Shown: positions 2 to 12,754, numbered from the stretch's first letter. The stretch is DNA of 47,493 bases from an uncultured Micrococcales bacterium (GCA_903922825.1 CAIXVE010000091.1:1-47493), one strand, 5' to 3'. A program made the numbers and translations. The notes: generated by a model not told the origin, from the letters alone.

Positions 2-418
2 ATAATAGGGTTTGGTCTTTTTTATCTGAATGGCCAAAGTGTTTATCCTGGTGTCTTAGCTTGGATTCCAGTTATCGGCACTGCTCTGGTTTTAGTTTTT
101 CCGTTGAAGCCCTTGGGCTTTGCTCCACTTAGATACATAGGCGACATTTCTTATTCGCTGTATCTTTGGCACTTCGTTTGGTTAGTTCTTCCAGTTCAGC
201 TCGAAAACCCTGTGACTGATAATTATTGGAAATGGGTCTTCTTGGGCGGTGCAGTTGCTTGTTCAGTTCTTTCATATCACTTCTTTGAAAGACCCATTCA
301 CAAGTCAATCACTCTGCATAAAGATAGGTTTTCGGCTTTCTTAATTGGATCAATATGTTTAGCTTTCACCTGGATGGTTATCGCTTTGGTAGAGAACCTT
401 TGGCTGCGAACTATTTAG
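2..418 (+). CDS. acyltransferase family 3 (OafA/YrhL-like) membrane protein, C-terminal part; 5' end outside the window
   Basis: Frame is open from base 2 (IIGFGLFYLNGQSVYPGVLAWIPVIGTALVLVFPLKPLG...) into the listed ORF; 'YPG..A..P..GTALVL' and 'YIGDISYSLYLWHFVW' are typical of acyltransferase_3 C-termini. Confidence 0.85.
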   Translation: MIGFGLFYLNGQSVYPGVLAWIPVIGTALVLVFPLKPLGFAPLRYIGDISYSLYLWHFVWLVLPVQLENPVTDNYWKWVFLGGAVACSVLSYHFFERPIHKSITLHKDRFSAFLIGSICLAFTWMVIALVENLWLRTI

Positions 419-1316
419 TTAGGTAGCGGGCGTAGCCTGGGACAAGATTGACGTGGTAGGTCTTGTTGATGTAGTTGATCACATATGTTCCCAGAACCGG
501 TTGACCTGCACTACTAAAGTGAATTCCATCTTGGCCTCTGATTTGGGTGTATTTGCCGTTGACCGGGCCACCCTCTCGATAATTTCCATTAGCATCCGAA
601 GTGAAGTTTCTTGTTTCAAGATAGGTGGCTCCAGGGACTTTAGGAACTGTCAGAGCAAACTGTTGATCTATTAGAGTTTCACCTTTTGCGTAATTGAAAG
701 GTTTCATAATTGGCAGGCCAACCCAAAGAACATATGCTCCGCTATTGGTGGCATCAGAAGCTAATTTGGTTACGTTAGCTCGGTAGGTCTTAATCCATGC
801 AGGTGTTGAAAAGTTCTGGTTCTTTCCATTAACGACATAGTCTTGCCTATCGTTAGCCCCCAAGAAAACTATTACTAGGTTTGGTTTATAGGTCTTTAGG
901 AATGCAGCTTGGTTGTTTGGCCAGTTATAGAACCAAGGATTAGATAGACCAGTTGATGCTTTAGCCTTCAAAATGAAACTTAATGAGCTTGCTTTGGCTA
1001 GTTCTGATTTCATGCCGTAACCCAGATTGTTCCCTAGAGAATCACCAACTAAAAGAAATCTGCAGTTCCCCAAAGCCTTCTTGAGAGCACCAACATCTGG
1101 GTTTAGGTTGCAGCCATCCGCTGCCAATTTCGTCTTAATAGCTGTGATGCTAGCTGGAGGGATAACAGGGTCAGGAATGGGATCGACTACCGGAGGTTTG
1201 ATCACTGGCTTAGTTTGCTCTAAAGCCAGAGCTAGTTGGCTGTTATTTAGCTCCAACCCAACGCTTGCACCAATCAGAGCTAACAGGGTCACTGCCAGGG
1301 CAATACGTCTAAACAT
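411..1316 (-). CDS. secreted SGNH/GDSL-type hydrolase
   Basis: N-terminal signal peptide; 'FLLVGDSLGNNLGYGM' (GDS block), 'VIVFLGANDRQD' (GxND block), 'GQDGIHFSSAG' (DxxH block). Confidence 0.85.
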   Translation of the reverse strand: MFRRIALAVTLLALIGASVGLELNNSQLALALEQTKPVIKPPVVDPIPDPVIPPASITAIKTKLAADGCNLNPDVGALKKALGNCRFLLVGDSLGNNLGYGMKSELAKASSLSFILKAKASTGLSNPWFYNWPNNQAAFLKTYKPNLVIVFLGANDRQDYVVNGKNQNFSTPAWIKTYRANVTKLASDATNSGAYVLWVGLPIMKPFNYAKGETLIDQQFALTVPKVPGATYLETRNFTSDANGNYREGGPVNGKYTQIRGQDGIHFSSAGQPVLGTYVINYINKTYHVNLVPGYARYLTK

Positions 1317-1405: not shown

Positions 1406-3334
1406 ATGCACATCTCAAAGAAGTCCTTAATCGCCCTGCTGGCTTCTATTGGAATGGTGCTTTCAATAGGCAATATTTCATCCGGTAAAGCACTGCCAAC
1501 CACAGTCATCTCCTTCGCTTCCTTGACTAAAGCCACCTTTGGCGATCCTGATGTTCCACTTACTATTTCCGAAACTGCTGGCACAACAACCGTCACATCT
1601 AATACCCCAGATGTCTGTTCCGTGGTGGCTCCTCGCCTAGTTCACATCATTTCTGCTGGACTTTGCAAATTGGTTGCAAATAATTCTGGATCCTTAGACC
1701 ACCAACCAGCCAGACCGGTGAGCAAGAGTTTCACTATAGCCAAAGCTGCTAATCCAATCACCATTTCTGATTTTGGTTGGATTTCGCTAGCATTCCCTGA
1801 CGTTGCGCTAAGCACCACTCAAGTGGCTGGAACAACAAACCTTGCTAGCTCAACTACGAGAATTTGTACTATCTCAGGCAACACAGTTCATGCAATAAAG
1901 ATTGGTAACTGCACAATCAAAGCAACTAATTCGGGAGATAGTAATCACCTGATGGCTAAAGCGGTTACTAAAACTGTTGCAATTGCCCAGACTTCAAGCA
2001 TTACACCACCTAACCCGGCACCTGTTGGGCCTTGGACTATTAGGCAACTTACCTTTGATGACACAAACTCAGCCGCAGATACTGGCGCTTCACAAGCCTG
2101 GGTTAACGCTGGCTGGTATCACGCTGGATTAAGTTTTAGAGTTGCACAAGTTGTGGTTTCGAGCACAACAGTCATGAGATATCTGGTTACCGACTCTAAA
2201 GGAAACCCAGTTCCAAATAAAGTTGTGAACCTGAGTGTTGGTAAACGCAATGGTGGATCTAATGCGAAAGTCAAAGTCGGAAACCTCAGCTCTGATGGAA
2301 CCGACAAGACACCGCAGGATCAGATTCTGGTTACAGGCACTACCGATGCGAACGGAATCGTTAGCTGGTCTATTACCGGCTTAGACACTGCTGCAAGAGG
2401 TGGCCTATACACACAGTTAGCTGCTTGGATTACAGATCTTTCAACTGACACCATCGACATCACTAACCTGGAGTTCAGCATTCCAGTTGGTGGCTCAAAT
2501 AATGGTGGTGGCAGTTCTGGAACAGCTGTTCAAAACAAGAGCCTTTTATGGTCAGATGAATTTGATGGTGCTGCTGGCACCGCTCCTAATAGTGCCAACT
2601 GGACTGCAGATATTGGTGATGGTTGCAATAATCCAGCCGGCTGCGGTTGGGGTAATGGTGAAGCTGAATCTTATGCATCTTGCGCAAGCAAAGCTGATGG
2701 CAATGGCGTAATGAACATCACAGCCTCAACAGTTTCTGGTGACCCTAATTGCACAAGTAATAAAACTTGGACTAGCGCTAAATTCACAAGCTACGGCAAG
2801 AAGAGTTTCGGCTATGGTTACTTCGAAGCAAGACTCAAAATGCCTAGTGGTGGCGGTACCTGGCCTGCTTTTTGGGCTCTTGGATCAAACATCAACACTG
2901 TGCCTTGGCCTAGCTGTGGTGAGTTAGATATCGTTGAATATGCAGGTAATAACCCATTCATTGACACATCGGCAGCTCACTACCTGAACCCAAGTGGAGT
3001 CCATGACTACAAGATGGGGGCTATGAACAATTCAACTGCTTTGGCTTCCGGCTACCACAACTACGGAATGCTTTGGTTGCCAACTGAAGTCACTTTCTAT
3101 ATTGATGATCGTATTGTTGCCACCGTGAAAAAATCTGACACCGGTCTTTCAACATGGCCTTTCGGTCCGAATTCTTCTGGAGTGAATCCGAAGATGTATA
3201 TCATTTTCAACCTAGCCATGGGCGGAAGCTACGGTGGTGGCATTGACTCTAACCTAACGAAAGCAACCTTTAGCATCGACTATTTCCGCTACTACAGTGC
3301 AAATGGTTACGGTTCTACCCCTACCAATAACTAG
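1406..3334 (+). CDS. secreted glycoside hydrolase family 16 (beta-glucanase/laminarinase-like) with N-terminal Ig-like repeats and a shared unknown domain
   Basis: Signal peptide; C-terminal GH16 with 'FWALGSN...CGELDIVEYAG' (ExDxxE catalytic motif), 'WLPTEVTFYIDD'. Confidence 0.88.
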   Translation: MHISKKSLIALLASIGMVLSIGNISSGKALPTTVISFASLTKATFGDPDVPLTISETAGTTTVTSNTPDVCSVVAPRLVHIISAGLCKLVANNSGSLDHQPARPVSKSFTIAKAANPITISDFGWISLAFPDVALSTTQVAGTTNLASSTTRICTISGNTVHAIKIGNCTIKATNSGDSNHLMAKAVTKTVAIAQTSSITPPNPAPVGPWTIRQLTFDDTNSAADTGASQAWVNAGWYHAGLSFRVAQVVVSSTTVMRYLVTDSKGNPVPNKVVNLSVGKRNGGSNAKVKVGNLSSDGTDKTPQDQILVTGTTDANGIVSWSITGLDTAARGGLYTQLAAWITDLSTDTIDITNLEFSIPVGGSNNGGGSSGTAVQNKSLLWSDEFDGAAGTAPNSANWTADIGDGCNNPAGCGWGNGEAESYASCASKADGNGVMNITASTVSGDPNCTSNKTWTSAKFTSYGKKSFGYGYFEARLKMPSGGGTWPAFWALGSNINTVPWPSCGELDIVEYAGNNPFIDTSAAHYLNPSGVHDYKMGAMNNSTALASGYHNYGMLWLPTEVTFYIDDRIVATVKKSDTGLSTWPFGPNSSGVNPKMYIIFNLAMGGSYGGGIDSNLTKATFSIDYFRYYSANGYGSTPTNN

Positions 3335-3355
3335 TTCTTGTATTTTGGGCTCTCT

Positions 3356-5782
3356 ATGAAACGTCTCAAAAGTTTTGCTTTGGTGACCGTTGCCATAACC
3401 ATTACGGTTTTAGGTTTAGCCATGAATTCAACTGCTGTTACTTTGCCAAGCACGACAATATCTTTTTTGAGCATACCCAAAGCCACATACGGAGCTGCAG
3501 ATATCTCTATTACTGTGAATCAGAATGTTGGGTTCACTACTGTCAGTTCTAATACTCCAGACATTTGTTCCATGGCTAGTGGAAGGAAAGTTCACATCCT
3601 AAATGCTGGTCTATGTAAACTGGTGGCTACTAACCCTGGGATTACTGGATATAAGCCAGCTCGGAATGTTTCTAAAAGTTTCACTGTGAGTAAGGCTCCT
3701 AACGCAATAACCATTTCTGATTTTCCTTGGATTTCACTCAAAAACCCAACAGCAGATTTGTTCACCACTCAAAATGGTGGAGTTACTTTCCTAAGTTCAA
3801 ACACCCCTAAGGTCTGCACAATTTCAAATAGCAAAGTGACTGCTTTAAAAGTTGGAACCTGCACAATTAAAGGCACTAACGGCGGAACTCTTAATTACAG
3901 CTCTGCAAAAACGGTAACTAGATCAGTCAAGATAGCGCTCACCTCAAATGTTCAACCGCCTACTCCAATCGGCCCTTGGACCATTCGCCAGGTTAGCTTT
4001 GACGACAGTAACTCTTTCGAAGACACTGCTGCTGAAAGTGATTGGGTTGCAAATGGCTGGTATCACTCAGGTCTTAGATATAGGTCAGTTCAGGTTGAGG
4101 CACTGTCAACTACCGCGATTAGCTATTTAGTTACGGACAGTTTAGGTCGGCCAACACCTAATAAACTCGTGAACTTCAGCGTAGGTAAGCGCTACGGAGG
4201 CTCGAACGCCAAAGTTCAAGTGGGAGCCTTTACCAGTAATGGTTCAGATAAAACACCTCAGGATCAGATTCAGGTTACTGGAACTACGAATTCTTCAGGA
4301 ATTGTCACTTGGTCAGTAACTGGCTTGGATACCACTGCGCGCAGTGGTCTATATACACAGGTTGCTGCCTGGATAACTGACCTAACTAAAGACACAATCG
4401 ACATCACAAACCTTGAATACAGCATCACATCCGGGGGAAATCAAGGCGGTGGAACCACTCCAGACCCAACCCTAACTGCGCCCTCTGGGGCGATAGACAG
4501 TCTCTTCTATCAACCTTGTACCGGAGTTGCTCTGCACGGACAAATCGCTAACATCGATGTCGATCCAACTGACCCATCAACTACGGCACTTGCGATAACT
4601 AGGGGAAGAACGGATCAACCTTCGGGTATCTGGGACTATTCAGTTTTAGCCTCTCTTCCTAAAGGAAGTTTCACTTCGAGTGTGAATAGATCAGTCACTA
4701 TTCAGGTTTACTCCCCTAAAGTCGGTGTGCCAATTTTGCTTCGCCTACAAAATGGCAGATCTAGTTACAACAAATTCATTCAGGCTCAGGCCTTAACAAC
4801 TAAGGCTAACCAGTGGGAAAAACTTACTTTTGATTTCAATCACTTAGCAGCAGGTTCTCAAACACTAGATTCAAATGCTGTTTATTCAACTTTAGCGCTG
4901 CTGGTTGATGCGGGTAATGCTTCAACTGGGCAAAAGTATTTCTTCAAGAATTTTCTTTTTCCTGGTGCCATCATAGATAACACCTTGCTGAGCACCTCAT
5001 CTACTAGCCCCACTCTTTCCAATAATCCAACAGCTACAGGAGATTATCTTTGGGCTGAAGAGTTCAACGGACAAACCGGTTCTAGACCAAACTCAGCAAC
5101 TTGGAAATATGGTCTTGATTGGAACAATTTCATTGTTGGCACTCAGCCAGATCTTGTTTCAGAAGATGGAAATGGAAACCTGTCTCTGGGAATGGAAAAA
5201 TGTTCTGGTGGTAACTGGGATGGTGCAATTATTCACACCTGGCAGAAGACAGCTTTCTTATACGGAAAAATAGAAGCTCGAATAAAGATTGCCTCAGATG
5301 CTGGCTGGTTCAGTGCTTTCTATATGTTTGGAGAAGATGTTCAACACTGGCCTTTATGTGGTGAGTTTGATATAGAAGAAGCCGGTCCATGGACTGACTT
5401 TGGTTCAAGTGGAACCATTCATGGTAACTACCCCGATGGCACTAGTGACTGGAATGGTGGCGGAGGGTTATCTAAGACTGTGCCGTACACCAGAGCTCAG
5501 CTATCTTCCGAGTACCACACCTATGGTTTACTCTGGACTCCAAACTCCATCGCTTTCACAATCGATGGAGTCTCCTACTCTAGTTACACAAAAGCTCAGG
5601 TGCTAGAGCTTGGCGGAACGTGGCCTTTCGATCAGCCAGAGTTTATGGTTTTTAGCCTCTACCCTTATTCAGCCAGCTTGCCAGCCAACACACCGGAGGG
5701 CACAGTTCTGAAGGGGCAGGTACTTGTTGACTGGATTCATTACTCTCAGTATCAGGGCTATGGCCAGATCATCAATCATTAA
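3356..5782 (+). CDS. second secreted GH16-like protein with an additional CBM-like insert
   Basis: Paralogous to 1406-3334; 'CGEFDIEEAG', 'LLWTPNSIAFTIDG'. Track start is 3338; ATG 3356 gives a cleaner signal peptide (MKRLKSFALVTVAITITVLGLAMNS). Confidence 0.82.
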   Translation: MKRLKSFALVTVAITITVLGLAMNSTAVTLPSTTISFLSIPKATYGAADISITVNQNVGFTTVSSNTPDICSMASGRKVHILNAGLCKLVATNPGITGYKPARNVSKSFTVSKAPNAITISDFPWISLKNPTADLFTTQNGGVTFLSSNTPKVCTISNSKVTALKVGTCTIKGTNGGTLNYSSAKTVTRSVKIALTSNVQPPTPIGPWTIRQVSFDDSNSFEDTAAESDWVANGWYHSGLRYRSVQVEALSTTAISYLVTDSLGRPTPNKLVNFSVGKRYGGSNAKVQVGAFTSNGSDKTPQDQIQVTGTTNSSGIVTWSVTGLDTTARSGLYTQVAAWITDLTKDTIDITNLEYSITSGGNQGGGTTPDPTLTAPSGAIDSLFYQPCTGVALHGQIANIDVDPTDPSTTALAITRGRTDQPSGIWDYSVLASLPKGSFTSSVNRSVTIQVYSPKVGVPILLRLQNGRSSYNKFIQAQALTTKANQWEKLTFDFNHLAAGSQTLDSNAVYSTLALLVDAGNASTGQKYFFKNFLFPGAIIDNTLLSTSSTSPTLSNNPTATGDYLWAEEFNGQTGSRPNSATWKYGLDWNNFIVGTQPDLVSEDGNGNLSLGMEKCSGGNWDGAIIHTWQKTAFLYGKIEARIKIASDAGWFSAFYMFGEDVQHWPLCGEFDIEEAGPWTDFGSSGTIHGNYPDGTSDWNGGGGLSKTVPYTRAQLSSEYHTYGLLWTPNSIAFTIDGVSYSSYTKAQVLELGGTWPFDQPEFMVFSLYPYSASLPANTPEGTVLKGQVLVDWIHYSQYQGYGQIINH

Positions 5783-5831
5783 TTGTCACCTGTTACCTGT
5801 ATTGTTTTGTTGATAATCCCAGAGGAGACCC

Positions 5832-7145
5832 GTGGATACCTTAACCATCATCGCGCTAGCTAACCTTGTTGCCATAATTGTGCTGGTCGCTATTTTCCTA
5901 ATGAGGAAACAATCCGGACCTAGCCAAGACATCTCTAAGGATCTACAACTTCACCGCGACGAACTGAGGTCTTCTATCAATAGCAATCATGAACTAATTC
6001 AGCAGAGCCTTGAAACCATTAGAACTGCCACTTCTACCGCTGCTCAGGCTCAACGCGATGAGGCGACAGCAAGTCGTACCGAATTGCAGAAATCACTTGT
6101 TGATGCTCTTAGAAACATAGAAACCAAAATAACTGAGCTGACTGACTCGAATGCCAAGAAACAGCAAGAACTAACTAACACTGTCCAATCAGAAATAGAA
6201 AAACTCCGCAAAGGCAACGAGGAGAAACTCGAGAAGATGCGTGAAACGGTTGACGAAAAACTTCAGGGCACACTTGAAAAGCGCCTAACCGAGTCATTTA
6301 GTTTGGTTAGCGAGAGACTTGAAGCCGTCCAACAGGGACTCGGTGAGATGAAGAACCTTGCCACCAACGTTGGTAGCCTGCAAAAAGTTCTAAGTAACGT
6401 TAAATCGCGGGGTGGATGGGGAGAAGTTCAGCTTGCTCGACAATTAGAGGACACTTTAGCTCCGAACCAATATGAACAGAATGTGAAGTTACGAATCGAC
6501 TCGAACGACATCGTTGAGTTTGCTATCAAGCTTCCTGGTCGTGCCGAAGGTGAAAGCGTTTATCTTCCGATTGACTCCAAGTTCCCTCAAGAAGATTACG
6601 AGCGCTTGCAAACCGCTCAAGAGAGCGGCTCCGCCGATGAATTGACTAAGGCTGGGAAAGATCTTGAGAAGGCAATTAAGGCTCAAGCCAAGCTGATTCA
6701 GGACAAGTATGTTCACCCACCTAAAACAACTGATTTCGCAATCATGTATTTACCAACCGAGGGTCTCTTTGCCGAGGTAGTCAGACGCCCTGGTTTGACG
6801 ACCGATTTGCAGAACAACTTCAGAGTTCTGGTCACTGGACCAACCACACTAATGTCCTTGCTAAATAGCCTTCAGATGGGCTTTAAGACCCTTGCCATCG
6901 AGAAGAGTGCTTCTGATGTTTGGAACGTCCTTGCCGCTGCTAAAAAGGAATTTGGCAAATATGGTGAAGTGATGGACAAGCTTGCTAAACAACTAGAAAC
7001 AGCACAAAAGACGGTTCAAGAGGTGGGCACCAGAACCAAAGCTGTCAAAAAGACTCTGTCTAAGGTCGAAAACTACGAGCTGCCTGAGTCAAAAGGTCCC
7101 CTGATTGGCCTACCTGAGTTCAGCGAGACTGAAGAAAGCAACTAG
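5832..7145 (+). CDS. rmuC: DNA recombination protein RmuC
   Basis: N-terminal TM, coiled coil, 'LGEMKNLATNVGSLQKVLSNVKSRGGWGEVQLARQLEDTLAPNQYEQN...LPIDSKFPQEDYERL' typical RmuC core. Confidence 0.95.
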   Translation: MDTLTIIALANLVAIIVLVAIFLMRKQSGPSQDISKDLQLHRDELRSSINSNHELIQQSLETIRTATSTAAQAQRDEATASRTELQKSLVDALRNIETKITELTDSNAKKQQELTNTVQSEIEKLRKGNEEKLEKMRETVDEKLQGTLEKRLTESFSLVSERLEAVQQGLGEMKNLATNVGSLQKVLSNVKSRGGWGEVQLARQLEDTLAPNQYEQNVKLRIDSNDIVEFAIKLPGRAEGESVYLPIDSKFPQEDYERLQTAQESGSADELTKAGKDLEKAIKAQAKLIQDKYVHPPKTTDFAIMYLPTEGLFAEVVRRPGLTTDLQNNFRVLVTGPTTLMSLLNSLQMGFKTLAIEKSASDVWNVLAAAKKEFGKYGEVMDKLAKQLETAQKTVQEVGTRTKAVKKTLSKVENYELPESKGPLIGLPEFSETEESN

Positions 7146-7247
7146 TAGCTCTTAGCAAACGAGCGCGTCTCAGGCCTCTAAGGCCCCCTTGCTGGCACTT
7201 TTATCACCTAACCCTAGACTTTATAGGGATTAGAGGGCGAGTAAGCG

Positions 7248-8987
7248 GTGAATCTTTCATTTTTAACCAACACAAGATCTTGGAGACGGTTTGGGTTAAC
7301 CGAAATTTGGAACTGGGGACTCTTTTGGTTTACCGCGAGCCTCGTGGCTTTGCTTAGCTACGCCTTTGACGCCGTTCGCCTCAATAACTATTCGCTTTCC
7401 TGGATTCCAATAAACCTGATCTCATTTTCAATTTCTCTGGGATTTTCTGTGGTTGTAGTGCTTATCGCTAGATCGCGCAAACTGATGCATCCATACATGA
7501 CCATTGTTAACTTTTTTGTCGCTGCCGTCTGCATGGGGATTAAAAACGCGCTAACTTTTATGCTTTGTGCTCCGTTTGGAATCGAAGACCAGGGAAATGT
7601 GTGGTCGAGATTCCTTGGTGGAACAGTCATTGGAATCGCAGCATTCATAGTTTATGGTTCTGTTGTTGCAGGAAGAATCGACCGAGTCAAGTCGTTAGGA
7701 GATCTGGCTACGAAAGAGCGAGCTTTAGTTGGCTTTAGAGATAACGTAACCGAACTTTTCATTGAAGAAGAACAAGAACTCCGTGAGCGCACCAGGAGAG
7801 AATTACTCCCAAGATTTGAAGCACTACAACAAAAAGTTGAACTTGGTTTAGATGGTAAGACTCTTACGAGCGACTTGCTTAACCTACTAACAAAAGAGGT
7901 TAGACCGCTTAGTGCCGAAATCGCTCGAGATGCGCAAAGTTTGTCCAGATTGACCCCCCAGTCTCTTACCGAGTCCAAAAGACTGCCTGTGGTAAAAGTT
8001 CAACTTCACAAAATGGTGCAACCATTCAAGAGCTTTGCGCTTACCACATTCGCCTGGTGGCTCGGAGTTGCTGTCGCAATTCCAAATCAAGGCCTAGAAC
8101 AAGCAATGATTGCTGCTCTGGTCTACTTCGCTTGCCTTAGCGTCCTGAGGTTTGCTTTGCTAGCATTCAAGCCGGTCTCTATATTTATCGCCCTAGTTGT
8201 ATTGACCATAGTCGCCCTACTGGCACCGTTCGCTAGTTACTATTTGCTTTACCAGGAACCTCATCTTCCCACGCAATCACCACTTATCGCTGCATACTAT
8301 GTCACTGGCGGGCTTTCAGTTTTGATCTTTGGATATTCACACATCTTTGACCTTTCTAGAATTGTGCTTGAAGACAGGTTGAAAAAAGTTGTGGAACAGT
8401 TCACTAGAGAAAACAAACTCTTCGAGCAAAAGCTCTGGATTGCTCGACATGTTTGGTACACCATGCTTCATGGCTCCGTGCAATCTGCATTGACTGCCGC
8501 CTCTATTCGCGCCTCTCATTCAAAGACTCTTAGCGAAGGTGATAGAAAAGCCATACTTCTTGACCTAAAAAGAGCCATGGATGCACTCAGAAATCCAAAG
8601 AAGGAGAACATAACTTTGGAGGAGAGTCTGAATGGGCTGCGTGAAACATGGGAGGGAATCTGCCAAATCCATCTAAAAGTGGAACCTTCGGCATCAAGGG
8701 CAGTAACCTCGTCGACAGATGCGAGTTTGGTAACAAATGAAATCCTAAAAGAATCGGTCAGCAATGCGGTTAAGCACGGAAGCTCCGATGAAGTCGAAAT
8801 AACTATTTCATTAGATGGCTCCAGCAATCTCGAAATATTAGTTTCAAGCAACGGTTCAAGGCCTAAGGAAAAGAATAGAAGTGGAATAGGTTCCGTTCTT
8901 TTTGAAACTCTGGGCACAGTCAATCAGCTTCGCTGGAACAGCCTAACTAATAAAACTGAACTCTACATTGTTATCCCAGTAGCTTAA
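7248..8987 (+). CDS. membrane protein with C-terminal histidine-kinase-like ATPase domain
   Basis: Multiple TM segments in two blocks, 'HGSVQSALTAASIR' and N-box-like 'NEILKESVSNAVKHG', 'GIGSVLFETLG'; no response regulator adjacent. Confidence 0.72.
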   Translation: MNLSFLTNTRSWRRFGLTEIWNWGLFWFTASLVALLSYAFDAVRLNNYSLSWIPINLISFSISLGFSVVVVLIARSRKLMHPYMTIVNFFVAAVCMGIKNALTFMLCAPFGIEDQGNVWSRFLGGTVIGIAAFIVYGSVVAGRIDRVKSLGDLATKERALVGFRDNVTELFIEEEQELRERTRRELLPRFEALQQKVELGLDGKTLTSDLLNLLTKEVRPLSAEIARDAQSLSRLTPQSLTESKRLPVVKVQLHKMVQPFKSFALTTFAWWLGVAVAIPNQGLEQAMIAALVYFACLSVLRFALLAFKPVSIFIALVVLTIVALLAPFASYYLLYQEPHLPTQSPLIAAYYVTGGLSVLIFGYSHIFDLSRIVLEDRLKKVVEQFTRENKLFEQKLWIARHVWYTMLHGSVQSALTAASIRASHSKTLSEGDRKAILLDLKRAMDALRNPKKENITLEESLNGLRETWEGICQIHLKVEPSASRAVTSSTDASLVTNEILKESVSNAVKHGSSDEVEITISLDGSSNLEILVSSNGSRPKEKNRSGIGSVLFETLGTVNQLRWNSLTNKTELYIVIPVA

Positions 8988-9030
8988 AAGAAATCAGCCC
9001 ACCCAAATTAATGGGTGGGCTGATTTCTTT
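8987..9030. terminator. bidirectional intrinsic terminator hairpin
   Basis: Perfect 18-bp inverted repeat AAAGAAATCAGCCCACCC-aaattaat-GGGTGGGCTGATTTCTTT between two convergent genes. Confidence 0.9.
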
Positions 9031-9037
9031 ACTTGAA

Positions 9038-12000
9038 CTAGTTAGTAATAGTCAGGTTTGTAGCTGAGCTAACAGTTCCACCAGCTGTTGTCACGTTGAT
9101 CTTGCCGGTTGTTGCACCTGCAGGAATCACGAACTTCAGTAGTGTTGCTGTCGCACCAGCGCTGACAGTTACAGAGGTTGAACCGATAGTAACGGTTGCA
9201 CCAAGTAAGTTAGTTCCCTTTACAGAAACCACTACGCCACTCTTACCAGAAGCTGGTGTGAATGAAGTGATGGTTGGTGATGGAGGCAACACGGTGAATG
9301 AAGCTGTGTAAACAGTTCCGCCACCAGTAACTATCTTGATAGCACCTGTTGTTGCTCCAGTAGGAACAACTACAGTCAAGGTGCTTCCGGTGTTAATGAC
9401 AGGTTTAGCTGTCTTGTTACCACCGAAGACAACGCTGGTTGCCTTCAAGTTGGAACCGGTGATAGTAACGGTCTGACCAACCTTGCCACTAGCGGTAGCA
9501 GTAGCCACAACAGGAGCCTGGTAAATTACCTTGCTGCTTGTTACAGTTCCACCAGCGTTAGTTGCGCTAACAGTTGAACCAGATACAACACCAGCTGGAA
9601 CAGTTACAATCACGCTGTTAGCAGTAAGGATGGTGAATGAAGCATTCACACTGCCGATAGTGATCGCACTTGCTGAAGCGATGTTAGTTCCGTTTAGGGT
9701 GAAGGTTGAACCAACTTCCTTTACCAATGAAGCTGGCAAGGTGATTGCCGGCTTTGTGGTGGTGGTAGCACTCGAACTGAACGTTGCCGCTGCAGTTGCA
9801 GTTCCACCTGAAGTGGTGACCTTGAAGACACCCTTTTGAGCATTTGCAGGAGAAGCGATAGTCGCTCTAGTTCCATCAGCATTTACTGAAAGAACTGTCA
9901 CGCTCTGGCTTACTGCCTGTGCTGTCTTTGTCGCTGCGGTGTATAGAACAACGCTGGTACCTAGAGCATCATTCAAGTTGGTTCCGACGATGTCAATTGC
10001 TTGACCCTTCTTACCGCTTGTAGCTGATACCGAGGTGATGGTAGGAGCTGAACTCTTAGGCTGGGTTACAACAATGTTGATCCAGTCCTGGTGAGTCAGA
10101 GCGTTACCTTCAACGTTGGTCTTGATCTGCATGAACAATGGGTTCAACTGGTCAGGGTTGGCTTTAGGGCTTCCTGGGTTTTGAGTTGCGTCCATTGGGT
10201 CATCCAGTGCGACAAGAGTCAATGTTACATAACCGTTTGAAACAGTTGCTGTAGTTGACGCCTGGTCTAGTTGACCGTTTGCACCCCACTTGGTTAGACC
10301 TGAAACGCTAACACCATTTACTGTGAACTTAGCGTTTGAGCCTGACCATGCGGAACCTAGAGCTAGGTCAACAACGGTTCCGTTTGGCGCAGCTGCGCCA
10401 GTCTTGGCGTTAGTTACGCTGTAACGAAGTGTTGTTGTAGTACCAGCTTTTACGTAGTGAGCAAAATAACCGGTGTATACATCGAACCAGTTGCCCAAGC
10501 CACCGTCACCCCATACGTGAGTACCGTCGAATGAGTTTCCTGCATTCCAGTCGGCTAGACGTACGTTGTAGACAGTAGGAGCTGGAGCTCCCTGAGGCTG
10601 GTAGTAAACAAGGTCAAGAATGTCTAGGACATCCTGGTTACCCTTTTCACCAACAAGTGCCAACTGAGCGAACAAGTGCTTTCCACCCTGTGGGTGCAAT
10701 ACGTTGTTTGCTTGGTATGGGTCAGCTTGTGCAGAGAAGTTGTTGTTCACAACATCGAATGAAACAACACCGTTTGAATCTGTTGTTAGATCGATTGATG
10801 TCTGGTCACCAGCACCTGGGAAGTTACTTCCGTTGACAGTTACGTTTGCAGAAGAACCAGAGTATGTCTTACCTAGCAATAGGTGAACTGTCTTGTTGGC
10901 GTAAGGTGCGCCATCAGCAGTCACTGTGTATGAAAGGTGAGTTGTAGTTCCAACTGTTACACCACGCTCGAAGTAACGAAGACCGGCGCCGTAGTACTGT
11001 GCCCAACCATCGGTGCTTCCAACAGCTGCGTTAGTTTCATCGATACCTGTAACGCGTGAAACCACGGTAGGTGTCGGAGCAACAGTAGCTGGTGCGTAGT
11101 AGACCATATCAACAACGTCAATTGTGTCTTGAGCCTGGCTAGTTACCCATGCGGCGATCTGAGTACGAAGGTCTTTACCTGTAGGCAAGACGTTCAAAAC
11201 AGAACCTGGGTTGTTAGCAGCATCAGCAGCAATGTCACTGTTAACTAGATCGAATGAAACTAGACCCTGTGAGTTTGTGACACCGGTAACAGTAACTTCG
11301 TTACCTGTTGAAGCAACTCCACCGACGTTCACCTTTGCAGATGAGCCAGAGTATGCCTTGCCCATTACAAAAGTAACTTGGACGTTAGCTAGCGGGCTGC
11401 CGTCTGCAGAGTTGTTAACAACGTAGGTTAGGTGCTGAGTTGAACCAACTGGAACCTGCTTGGTTAGAGCGCGAACTCCACCGCGGTACCAGTCGTGAGC
11501 AACAGACCAGTCCTGCTCTGCACCAGTGTTCTCCACTGAGTTAGTAGCGTCAATTCCAGCTAGACGTACAGTTGCGTTTCCAGAGAAAGCAGTTGGTGAT
11601 CCACCGCCTGAATTTCCACCAGATCCACCAGCTGCTAGAGCAGCACCAGTTGCACCGTTGAACGCGATGTCATCGATGTACCAAACAGAAGGTGTCTTGT
11701 CAGCACAACCAGCAGTTGCTGGGTTGAAATCCGGGAAGATGCTTGCTTTGTTGAAGTCAACAGCTGTGTCATATCCACTCAAGTCGAAACTTAGTGTCTG
11801 CCAACCAGCGGTGGTGGTTAATGTCTTTTGAACATTTGCCCCTCCGGTTACGCTACTCTCAAGTTTCAAAGTAATTGAACCACCAGCAATAGGGGAATAC
11901 ACATTTGCTGTGACTGTTGTTTTTCCTGCTGAAACCAATGATTCTTTTAGCCCTCTAGTTAGGAAGGTAGCACCAGACCAGCATGCTCCAGCGCTAGAAA

Positions 12001-12754
12001 GCTTTAGAGCGGAAGTCGAGTCTGCTGATCCTCCAGCAGGTGCGTCATTTACTTTTGAAGAAATTGTTCCACCAAAATCAGCGGCACCGCCAGCCAAATA
12101 ACCTGAAGTGTCATTTGATTCGAAGTTAACTAAAACTGTTGGAGTAGTTCTAGGAGTAACAACGTCAGCCTTGGTTGCACCAGGGAATGAAATGTTATCG
12201 AAGTACCAAACGGTTTCAGTTTTATCAGCGGACCAAGCACAACCTGCGCCACCGATGTTTGGCATAAGTGAGGCTTTGAAATATTTTTGTGCATCATTGA
12301 ATGAGTCGCTGAAGTCAAAGGTCAGAGTCTGCCAACCAGCGCCATTCACATGAAGGGTCTTCTCTGCAACAGCAGTTCCCTCTAGCTTCAAGTCAACACA
12401 TCTATCTGTTGAATCTGGTGAGTAAACAGATAGGGTCGCAGTCTTATCTGCGGATGAAATCAAGCTTGATCCAGAATCTAAAGTTAGGAAAGTTGTTCCG
12501 GACCAAAGCGCGCCTTGATTGTCTTGCGCCATAGCTACGCCAGAAGTGAATCCGGCTCCAGCTGGGGCCGAAGAGGTTGTAGTGGTCACAGCGCCGTCGT
12601 AATCAACGAAGCTATAGCCTGATGTGTCATTGCTCTCAAATGTTACGTTTACCGGAGCCGATGATGCATGAGCTGCCGGTAGAGCAACGAATGAGGAACC
12701 GATAACCAAGAGTGATGTCGCGATAGACATCAATCTAGAATTTTTGAGGTTCAT
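9038..12754 (-). CDS. large secreted modular protein: two CBM-like repeats, three copies of a domain shared with the GH16 proteins, about four IPT/TIG repeats
   Basis: Signal peptide; duplicated 'FESNDTSGY...WYFDNISFPGA/WYIDDIAFNGA'; triplicated 'GSSAKV.V.G...TD..G.VSFD.V'; C-terminal 'PTITSFTPASGKSGVVVSVKGTNL' IPT/TIG repeats. Confidence 0.85.
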   Translation of the reverse strand: MNLKNSRLMSIATSLLVIGSSFVALPAAHASSAPVNVTFESNDTSGYSFVDYDGAVTTTTSSAPAGAGFTSGVAMAQDNQGALWSGTTFLTLDSGSSLISSADKTATLSVYSPDSTDRCVDLKLEGTAVAEKTLHVNGAGWQTLTFDFSDSFNDAQKYFKASLMPNIGGAGCAWSADKTETVWYFDNISFPGATKADVVTPRTTPTVLVNFESNDTSGYLAGGAADFGGTISSKVNDAPAGGSADSTSALKLSSAGACWSGATFLTRGLKESLVSAGKTTVTANVYSPIAGGSITLKLESSVTGGANVQKTLTTTAGWQTLSFDLSGYDTAVDFNKASIFPDFNPATAGCADKTPSVWYIDDIAFNGATGAALAAGGSGGNSGGGSPTAFSGNATVRLAGIDATNSVENTGAEQDWSVAHDWYRGGVRALTKQVPVGSTQHLTYVVNNSADGSPLANVQVTFVMGKAYSGSSAKVNVGGVASTGNEVTVTGVTNSQGLVSFDLVNSDIAADAANNPGSVLNVLPTGKDLRTQIAAWVTSQAQDTIDVVDMVYYAPATVAPTPTVVSRVTGIDETNAAVGSTDGWAQYYGAGLRYFERGVTVGTTTHLSYTVTADGAPYANKTVHLLLGKTYSGSSANVTVNGSNFPGAGDQTSIDLTTDSNGVVSFDVVNNNFSAQADPYQANNVLHPQGGKHLFAQLALVGEKGNQDVLDILDLVYYQPQGAPAPTVYNVRLADWNAGNSFDGTHVWGDGGLGNWFDVYTGYFAHYVKAGTTTTLRYSVTNAKTGAAAPNGTVVDLALGSAWSGSNAKFTVNGVSVSGLTKWGANGQLDQASTTATVSNGYVTLTLVALDDPMDATQNPGSPKANPDQLNPLFMQIKTNVEGNALTHQDWINIVVTQPKSSAPTITSVSATSGKKGQAIDIVGTNLNDALGTSVVLYTAATKTAQAVSQSVTVLSVNADGTRATIASPANAQKGVFKVTTSGGTATAAATFSSSATTTTKPAITLPASLVKEVGSTFTLNGTNIASASAITIGSVNASFTILTANSVIVTVPAGVVSGSTVSATNAGGTVTSSKVIYQAPVVATATASGKVGQTVTITGSNLKATSVVFGGNKTAKPVINTGSTLTVVVPTGATTGAIKIVTGGGTVYTASFTVLPPSPTITSFTPASGKSGVVVSVKGTNLLGATVTIGSTSVTVSAGATATLLKFVIPAGATTGKINVTTAGGTVSSATNLTITN

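What the first reader, a model, noticed from the sequence alone, without database searches (positions are those of the whole stretch)
2029..11575. Unassigned extracellular domain shared by both GH16 proteins and triplicated in the 1238-aa secreted protein
About 150 aa beginning 'WTIRQLTFDDTNS...' (about 2029-2490 and 3973-4430) recurs three times in the minus-strand protein (about 11100-11575, 10600-11075, 10060-10575). Shared core: 'D..NS..DT....W....WY..G....', 'GSSAKV.V.G', 'TD..G.VS....', ending '..Q.AAWVT...DTIDI.DL.Y'. It does not match an Ig, CBM or TIG domain I recognise. Its presence in catalytic and non-catalytic partners suggests a dedicated glucan-binding or cell-surface tethering module.
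Basis: partly seen in the sequence, partly recalled or inferred. Interest (0 to 1): 0.72.

Follow-up and report, generated by a model that had tools for sequence, protein, structure and literature searches.

The report
Ig-like module of laminarin-utilisation proteins
The repeated domain is real: it is an immunoglobulin-like building block, extended at both ends, that small planktonic actinobacteria use almost only in secreted proteins for eating beta-1,3-glucans such as the algal storage sugar laminarin, and it probably helps catch or hold the sugar or the enzymes at the cell.

Summary
Five copies confirmed (30-69% identical, far above shuffles). The domain is not unassignable: its core is a divergent Pfam BIg21 (PF05688)/Big_1-type Ig-like domain. 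Window copies fall below Pfam's cut-off, but homologues pass it (35.8-47 bits against 27.4). AlphaFold2 gives a confident beta sandwich (pLDDT 90.9) with N- and C-terminal extensions outside the Pfam model. The Ig-like domain tracks laminarin machinery: 36 of 37 domain-bearing genomes of the genus have GH16; 1 of 22 GH16-less genomes has the domain. Of 67 non-catalytic domain proteins, 39 lie within 7 kb of a GH16 gene; others, including one in this genome, end ABC-importer/GH1/LacI operons. A different class of Actinomycetota repeats the pattern, including GH16 fusions. Tandem-only proteins argue that the domain has a ligand and is not just a spacer. Best reading: accessory glucan-capture/display module, comparable in role to Bacteroidota surface glycan-binding proteins. 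Direct glucan binding versus wall tethering is unproven. New variant of a known kind.

The parts
2033..2488 (+). Extended Ig-like domain, copy A1 (aa 210-361 of the 642-aa GH16 protein)
   Evidence: BIg21 sub-threshold 20.5 bits
3977..4432 (+). Extended Ig-like domain, copy A2 (aa 214-365 of the 814-aa GH16 protein); the copy whose structure was predicted
11090..11578 (-). Extended Ig-like domain, copy B1 (aa 393-555 of the 1238-aa protein)
10595..11068 (-). Extended Ig-like domain, copy B2 (aa 563-720)
10058..10579 (-). Extended Ig-like domain, copy B3 (aa 726-899), the most divergent
4487..4972 (+). CBM X584-like (laminarin-binding type) module of the 814-aa protein, aa 384-545
12170..12652 (-). 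CBM X584-like module 1 of the 1238-aa protein, aa 35-195
11645..12136 (-). CBM X584-like module 2 of the 1238-aa protein, aa 207-370; the copy whose structure was predicted
2561..3331 (+). GH16 catalytic domain, laminarinase type, ExDxxE motif ELDIVE
   Evidence: Pfam PF00722 76.5 bits; nearest solved structure ULam111 5WUT E 1e-46
5042..5779 (+). GH16 catalytic domain, beta-1,3-glucanase type, motif EFDIEE
   Evidence: Pfam PF00722 75 bits; nearest solved structure 2HYK beta-1,3-glucanase E 3e-24
9047..10048 (-). Four TIG/IPT repeats, C-terminal part of the 1238-aa protein
   Evidence: Pfam PF01833, 4 stretches
1511..2020 (+). Two short repeats (about 90 aa each) before the Ig-like domain of the 642-aa protein
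   Evidence: sequence; module comparison
3443..3961 (+). The corresponding two short repeats of the 814-aa protein (weak Big_2 match)

Best explanation
The segment is an Ig-like beta-sandwich domain: a BIg21/Big_1-type core plus a conserved N-terminal strand-helix-'WY' extension and a C-terminal extra strand. Small planktonic actinobacteria use it almost exclusively in the secreted part of their beta-1,3-glucan (laminarin) utilisation system. In the most likely mechanism, secreted proteins built from this domain, with or without CBM X584 modules, capture glucan and hold it near the GH16 endo-glucanases that carry the same domain at the cell surface. Oligosaccharides then pass to the SBP/permease importer and are finished by cytoplasmic GH1 under LacI control. 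Shown: homology, fold family, gene context, laminarin-CBM homologues and laminarinase-type GH16 in the same proteins. Inferred: surface location, and that this domain itself contacts glucan or a partner rather than only spacing the other modules.
For: Five homologous copies. BIg21 above cut-off in homologues. Confident Ig-like model, with weak Ig/MG-like fold matches. Co-occurrence with GH16 in the genus 36/1/9/21, Fisher p 2e-9. 39 of 67 non-catalytic domain proteins within 7 kb of GH16 and 20 within 2 kb. Own-genome tandem protein directly after SBP-permease-permease-GH1-LacI. Same context in another class of Actinomycetota, including fusion to GH16. CBM X584 partner modules. Proteins consisting only of this domain plus a small tail exist and are conserved, which a pure spacer would not explain. 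Conserved W28-Y29 pair: W in 68 of 75 copies, Y or F next to it in 65. Published precedent: the C-terminal region of GH16 PglA that contains its Ig-like domain binds insoluble beta-1,3-glucan (PMC4219603).
Against: No binding data. The window proteins that carry CBM X584 already have a dedicated glucan binder. Whether W28-Y29 is exposed could not be examined (no coordinates available). In the 1238-aa orthologues, copies 2 and 3 are as conserved as the TIG repeats and more conserved than the CBMs, which could also mean a structural role. Genus-level co-occurrence is not corrected for shared ancestry.
Confidence: 0.55

Rival explanations
1. Structural spacer: the domain only sets the distance and orientation between CBM X584, GH16 and TIG modules, as many bacterial Ig-like domains do, and has no ligand of its own.
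For: Ig-like fold. It lies between CBM and TIG modules in the 1238-aa protein and between repeats and catalytic domain in the GH16 proteins. In the 1238-aa orthologues copies 2 and 3 evolve like the TIG repeats.
Against: Proteins made only of one or two such domains and a short tail are kept next to GH16 genes or importer operons. Restriction to glucan loci in two classes is not expected of a generic spacer.
Confidence: 0.25
2. Cell-surface tether: the domain binds the producer's own wall or another surface protein, so that GH16 enzymes and binding proteins without a covalent anchor stay on the cell.
For: Window proteins have a hydrophobic N-terminus but no lipobox, no LPXTG and no C-terminal membrane segment, although the genome has two sortases. 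The domain is the one module shared by all four domain-bearing proteins of this genome.
Against: No match to known wall-binding domains. Four of the six GH16 genes of the genome lack the domain. The TIG repeats or the short C-terminal tails could be the anchor instead.
Confidence: 0.2

Closest known systems
Pfam PF05688 BIg21 (bacterial Ig-like 21; related to Big_1/invasin-type domains)
   Same: Core sequence pattern and Ig-like sandwich; homologues score above the curated cut-off
   Different: Window copies score below the cut-off; conserved N-terminal and C-terminal extensions of about 35 and 20 residues lie outside the model; restricted to glucan-utilisation proteins
CBM X584 (PDB 8QX6, novel laminarin-binding CBM)
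   Same: Family of the neighbouring module in the 814- and 1238-aa proteins
   Different: It is not the domain asked about; the Ig-like domain shows no match to it
Surface glycan-binding proteins (SGBPs) of Bacteroidota beta-1,3-glucan loci (PMC7157763)
   Same: Comparable role proposed: non-catalytic secreted proteins encoded beside GH16 and importer genes
   Different: No lipoprotein anchor and no SusC/SusD; ABC importer, GH1 and LacI instead
PglA, Paenibacillus GH16 beta-1,3-glucanase with a C-terminal Ig-like domain (PMC4219603)
   Same: Ig-like domain attached to a GH16 beta-1,3-glucanase; the C-terminal region binds insoluble beta-1,3-glucan
   Different: Homology of its Ig-like domain to the present one was not tested here; it lies C-terminal of GH16
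Rhodoluna beta-1,3-glucan CAZyme gene clusters (PMC12915301, PMC12422013)
   Same: GH16s, cellobiose-type ABC importer, LacI and GH1 in freshwater Luna-1 Microbacteriaceae, transcribed in situ
   Different: The passages read do not mention the Ig-like domain or its free-standing proteins

Membership tests
Pfam BIg21 (PF05688) | Score above the curated cut-off (27.4 bits) | tested here: inconclusive
   Window copy 20.5 bits, below; homologous copies 47.0, 44.0, 35.8 and 40.0, above
Pfam BIg21 (PF05688) | Ig-like beta sandwich | tested here: met
   AlphaFold2 pLDDT 90.9, all-beta core; weak Ig/MG-like matches in PDB, best E 6e-4 with TM 0.38-0.48
Big_1 / invasin D3 (PF02369, PF09134) | Score above the curated cut-off | tested here: not met
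   Best matches to this domain 18.4 and 22.2 bits against 34.9 and 33
Known carbohydrate-binding module family (for the Ig-like domain) | Sequence match to a CBM in Pfam, NCBIfam or PDB | tested here: not met
   None
Known carbohydrate-binding module family (for the Ig-like domain) | Measured carbohydrate binding | not testable with these tools
   Needs a binding assay
CBM X584 (neighbouring module) | Sequence and fold match to 8QX6 | tested here: met
   E 8.3e-17; Foldseek E 5.9e-6, TM 0.65
GH16 beta-1,3-glucanase | GH16 profile and ExDxxE catalytic motif | tested here: met
   PF00722 76.5 and 75 bits; motifs ELDIVE and EFDIEE; laminarinase structures nearest
Bacteroidota SGBP system | Lipoprotein surface anchor and SusC/SusD neighbours | tested here: not met
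   No lipobox; neighbours are ABC importer, GH1 and LacI. Works-like only
LPXTG surface proteins | C-terminal LPXTG and membrane segment | tested here: not met

The most novel reading that the evidence does not exclude
The extended Ig-like domain is itself an undescribed beta-1,3-glucan-binding module (a new CBM family on an invasin-type Ig fold), and its free-standing tandem proteins are the surface glycan-binding proteins of single-membrane planktonic actinobacteria, giving them a counterpart of the Bacteroidota laminarin loci.
Probability: 0.38. Interest if true: 0.68.

Novelty: new variant of a known kind. Interest (0 to 1): 0.48.

Why it matters
Laminarin is a major algal storage carbon, and how small-genome freshwater actinobacteria compete for it is little studied. 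A domain that marks their secreted glucan machinery, including free-standing proteins with no current annotation, gives a sequence handle to find these systems in metagenomes and a simple binding experiment to show how single-membrane planktonic cells hold on to a soluble polysaccharide.

Tried and rejected
Chance similarity of the five segments: rejected. TIG or known-CBM identity of the domain: no support. Anchoring by LPXTG, lipobox or C-terminal membrane segment: none found although sortases exist. A specifically invasin/adhesin role: Big_1 and Invasin_D3 matches stay below cut-off and the context is glucan use. PDB sequence search with the domain profile gave nothing useful. Paper searches for 8QX6 and for the CBM X584 paper found nothing held.

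Full report
THE OBSERVATION. Three ORFs carry the segments: 1406-3334(+), 642 aa; 3338-5782(+), 814 aa; 9038-12754(-), 1238 aa. The five segments lie at 2033-2488, 3977-4432, 11090-11578, 10595-11068 and 10058-10579. They align with 30-69% identity, BLASTP E 2e-77 to 6e-9, and scores 13.6-82.6 SD above shuffles. B3 is the most divergent copy.

WHAT THE DOMAIN IS. Against Pfam the 642-aa protein gives BIg21 (PF05688) at E 7e-4, below the cut-off. Homologues found by profile search in related genomes score 47.0, 44.0 and 35.8 bits against a cut-off of 27.4, and a homologue in another class scores 40.0. Of 20 aligned copies 9 hit BIg21 and 6 Big_1 at E<0.1. AlphaFold2 on copy A2 with 20 sequences gives pLDDT 90.9 and pTM 0.85: ten strands and one helix (residues 17-25), the helix lying in the N-terminal extension. 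Fold matches in the PDB are weak; the best is complement C5 macroglobulin domain MG4 (E 6e-4, TM 0.38-0.48), with S-layer SbsC Ig-like domains among the rest. So the core is of a known Ig-like type. Inference from the strand order: the BIg21 core spans roughly residues 34-132, and the N-terminal strand-helix-WY segment and the last strand are extensions outside the Pfam model. In 75 copies the best conserved positions include G108 (75 of 75), T104 (74), A78 (69), W28 (68), S76 (68), G57 (67), Q128 (66), Y50 (63) and N12 (62) (its numbering is one higher).

A SECOND SHARED MODULE. The 1238-aa protein starts with two further repeats (aa 35-195 and 207-370), and the 814-aa GH16 protein has one between its Ig-like and GH16 domains (aa 384-545); the three are homologous. 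Their profile hits PDB 8QX6 at E 8.3e-17. The predicted structure (pLDDT 81) matches the same entry first, E 5.9e-6, TM 0.65, with CBM families 11, 16, 22 and 61 further down; the PDB title is 'Novel laminarin-binding CBM X584'. The GH16 domains have ExDxxE motifs and laminarinases or beta-1,3-glucanases as nearest solved relatives. Architectures: 642-aa protein = signal peptide, two short repeats, Ig-like, GH16; 814-aa = the same with CBM X584 before GH16; 1238-aa = CBM X584 x2, Ig-like x3, TIG x4.

DISTRIBUTION AND CONTEXT. The genome has one more domain protein (477 aa, two copies and a tail of about 70 aa) directly after SBP, two permeases, GH1 and LacI. In the genus 37 of 67 genomes carry the domain and 45 carry GH16: 36 both, 1 domain only, 9 GH16 only, 21 neither, Fisher p 2e-9. 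This ignores shared ancestry, and incomplete genomes add noise. In a sample of 393 genomes of the family only the own genus and one other genus match. In the order sample, besides the own genome, one other genome matches, at only 4e-5. Of 67 non-catalytic domain ORFs in the genus, 39 lie within 7 kb and 20 within 2 kb of a GH16 domain, where about 5.6% and 1.6% would be expected for random placement with five GH16 genes in 1.25 Mb. The GH16 list was cut in the output and many contigs are short, so the counts are lower bounds; orthologues are not independent, so the binomial probabilities should not be taken literally. The loci contain importer, GH1, LacI and GH16 genes (gene names there by sequence resemblance, confirmed with Pfam for the own genome). 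In the phylum sample one strong match lies in a different class. Ten of 173 genomes of that family have the domain. In 9 of 11 loci examined the domain is fused to GH16 or lies beside GH1 or GH16, usually with an Opp-type ABC importer and in several with LacI. All 10 domain genomes have GH16 against 6 of 20 others listed; those 20 are not a random sample. This is the strongest evidence, because importer type and protein architecture differ while the glucan context is kept.

ORGANISM. The titles of related loci (Micrococcales MAGs), the genome sizes of mostly 1.1-1.5 Mb and the published Rhodoluna beta-1,3-glucan clusters (PMC12915301, PMC12422013) suggest Rhodoluna (Luna-1 Microbacteriaceae); this is inference.

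MECHANISM. Context shows that the domain serves extracellular beta-glucan use. Three roles fit: glucan contact, tether, spacer. Proteins made of nothing but two such domains and a tail, kept beside GH16 genes or importer operons in many species, are hard to explain as spacers. In GH16 orthologues the domain (0.71 in the 642-aa type, 0.66 in the 814-aa type) changes more slowly than the preceding repeats (0.61-0.68; 0.50-0.53) and faster than GH16 (0.78; 0.76). In the large protein, copies 2-3 and TIG (0.68-0.72) change more slowly than copy 1 (0.48) and the CBMs (0.48-0.56). The last comparison mildly favours a structural or anchoring role there. No covalent or lipid anchor is visible although sortases exist, which leaves room for a tether. 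Precedent for glucan contact: the C-terminal region of PglA that contains its Ig-like domain binds insoluble beta-1,3-glucan (PMC4219603). Role analogues are the SGBPs of Bacteroidota beta-1,3-glucan loci (PMC7157763). I rank glucan capture/display first (0.55), spacer 0.25, tether 0.2.

VERDICT. Observation confirmed. The 'unassigned' label is corrected to a divergent, extended BIg21-type Ig-like domain. Dedication to glucan use is well supported. Binding is undecided.

Noticed in passing
window 4487-4972(+), 11645-12136(-), 12170-12652(-): Laminarin-binding CBM X584-like modules (PDB 8QX6 relatives) in an actinobacterium, with no Pfam match at E<1.
   Followed up: yes
window 9047-10048(-): Four C-terminal TIG repeats of the 1238-aa protein are as conserved between species (0.72) as Ig-like copies 2 and 3; possible anchor.
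   Followed up: partly
window 7248-8987(+): 579-aa membrane protein with a weak histidine-kinase ATPase match (22.8 bits, below cut-off) between rmuC and the 1238-aa protein gene; a similar gene lies there in some related genomes (L015, L070, L094). Could be a sensor.
   Followed up: no
window 411-1316(-): DUF459/SGNH-type secreted hydrolase gene next to the first GH16 gene, beside the end of an acyltransferase-like gene (2-418); conserved neighbours in L071 and L069.
   Followed up: no
L060:5772-7202(+) and other 470-540-aa proteins: C-terminal tail of about 70 aa, lysine-rich, shared by many free-standing tandem proteins of the genus; unassigned, possibly an anchor.
   Followed up: no
L068:5478-6485(-) and relatives of 330-365 aa: Single-domain protein directly beside a GH16 gene at a nearly constant distance (335-374 bases between domains) in eight genomes.
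   Followed up: partly
L110:3113-7438(+), L114:2101-4620(-): In a different class of Actinomycetota the Ig-like domain is fused to GH16 in 1442-aa and 840-aa ORFs, an architecture different from the window's.
   Followed up: partly
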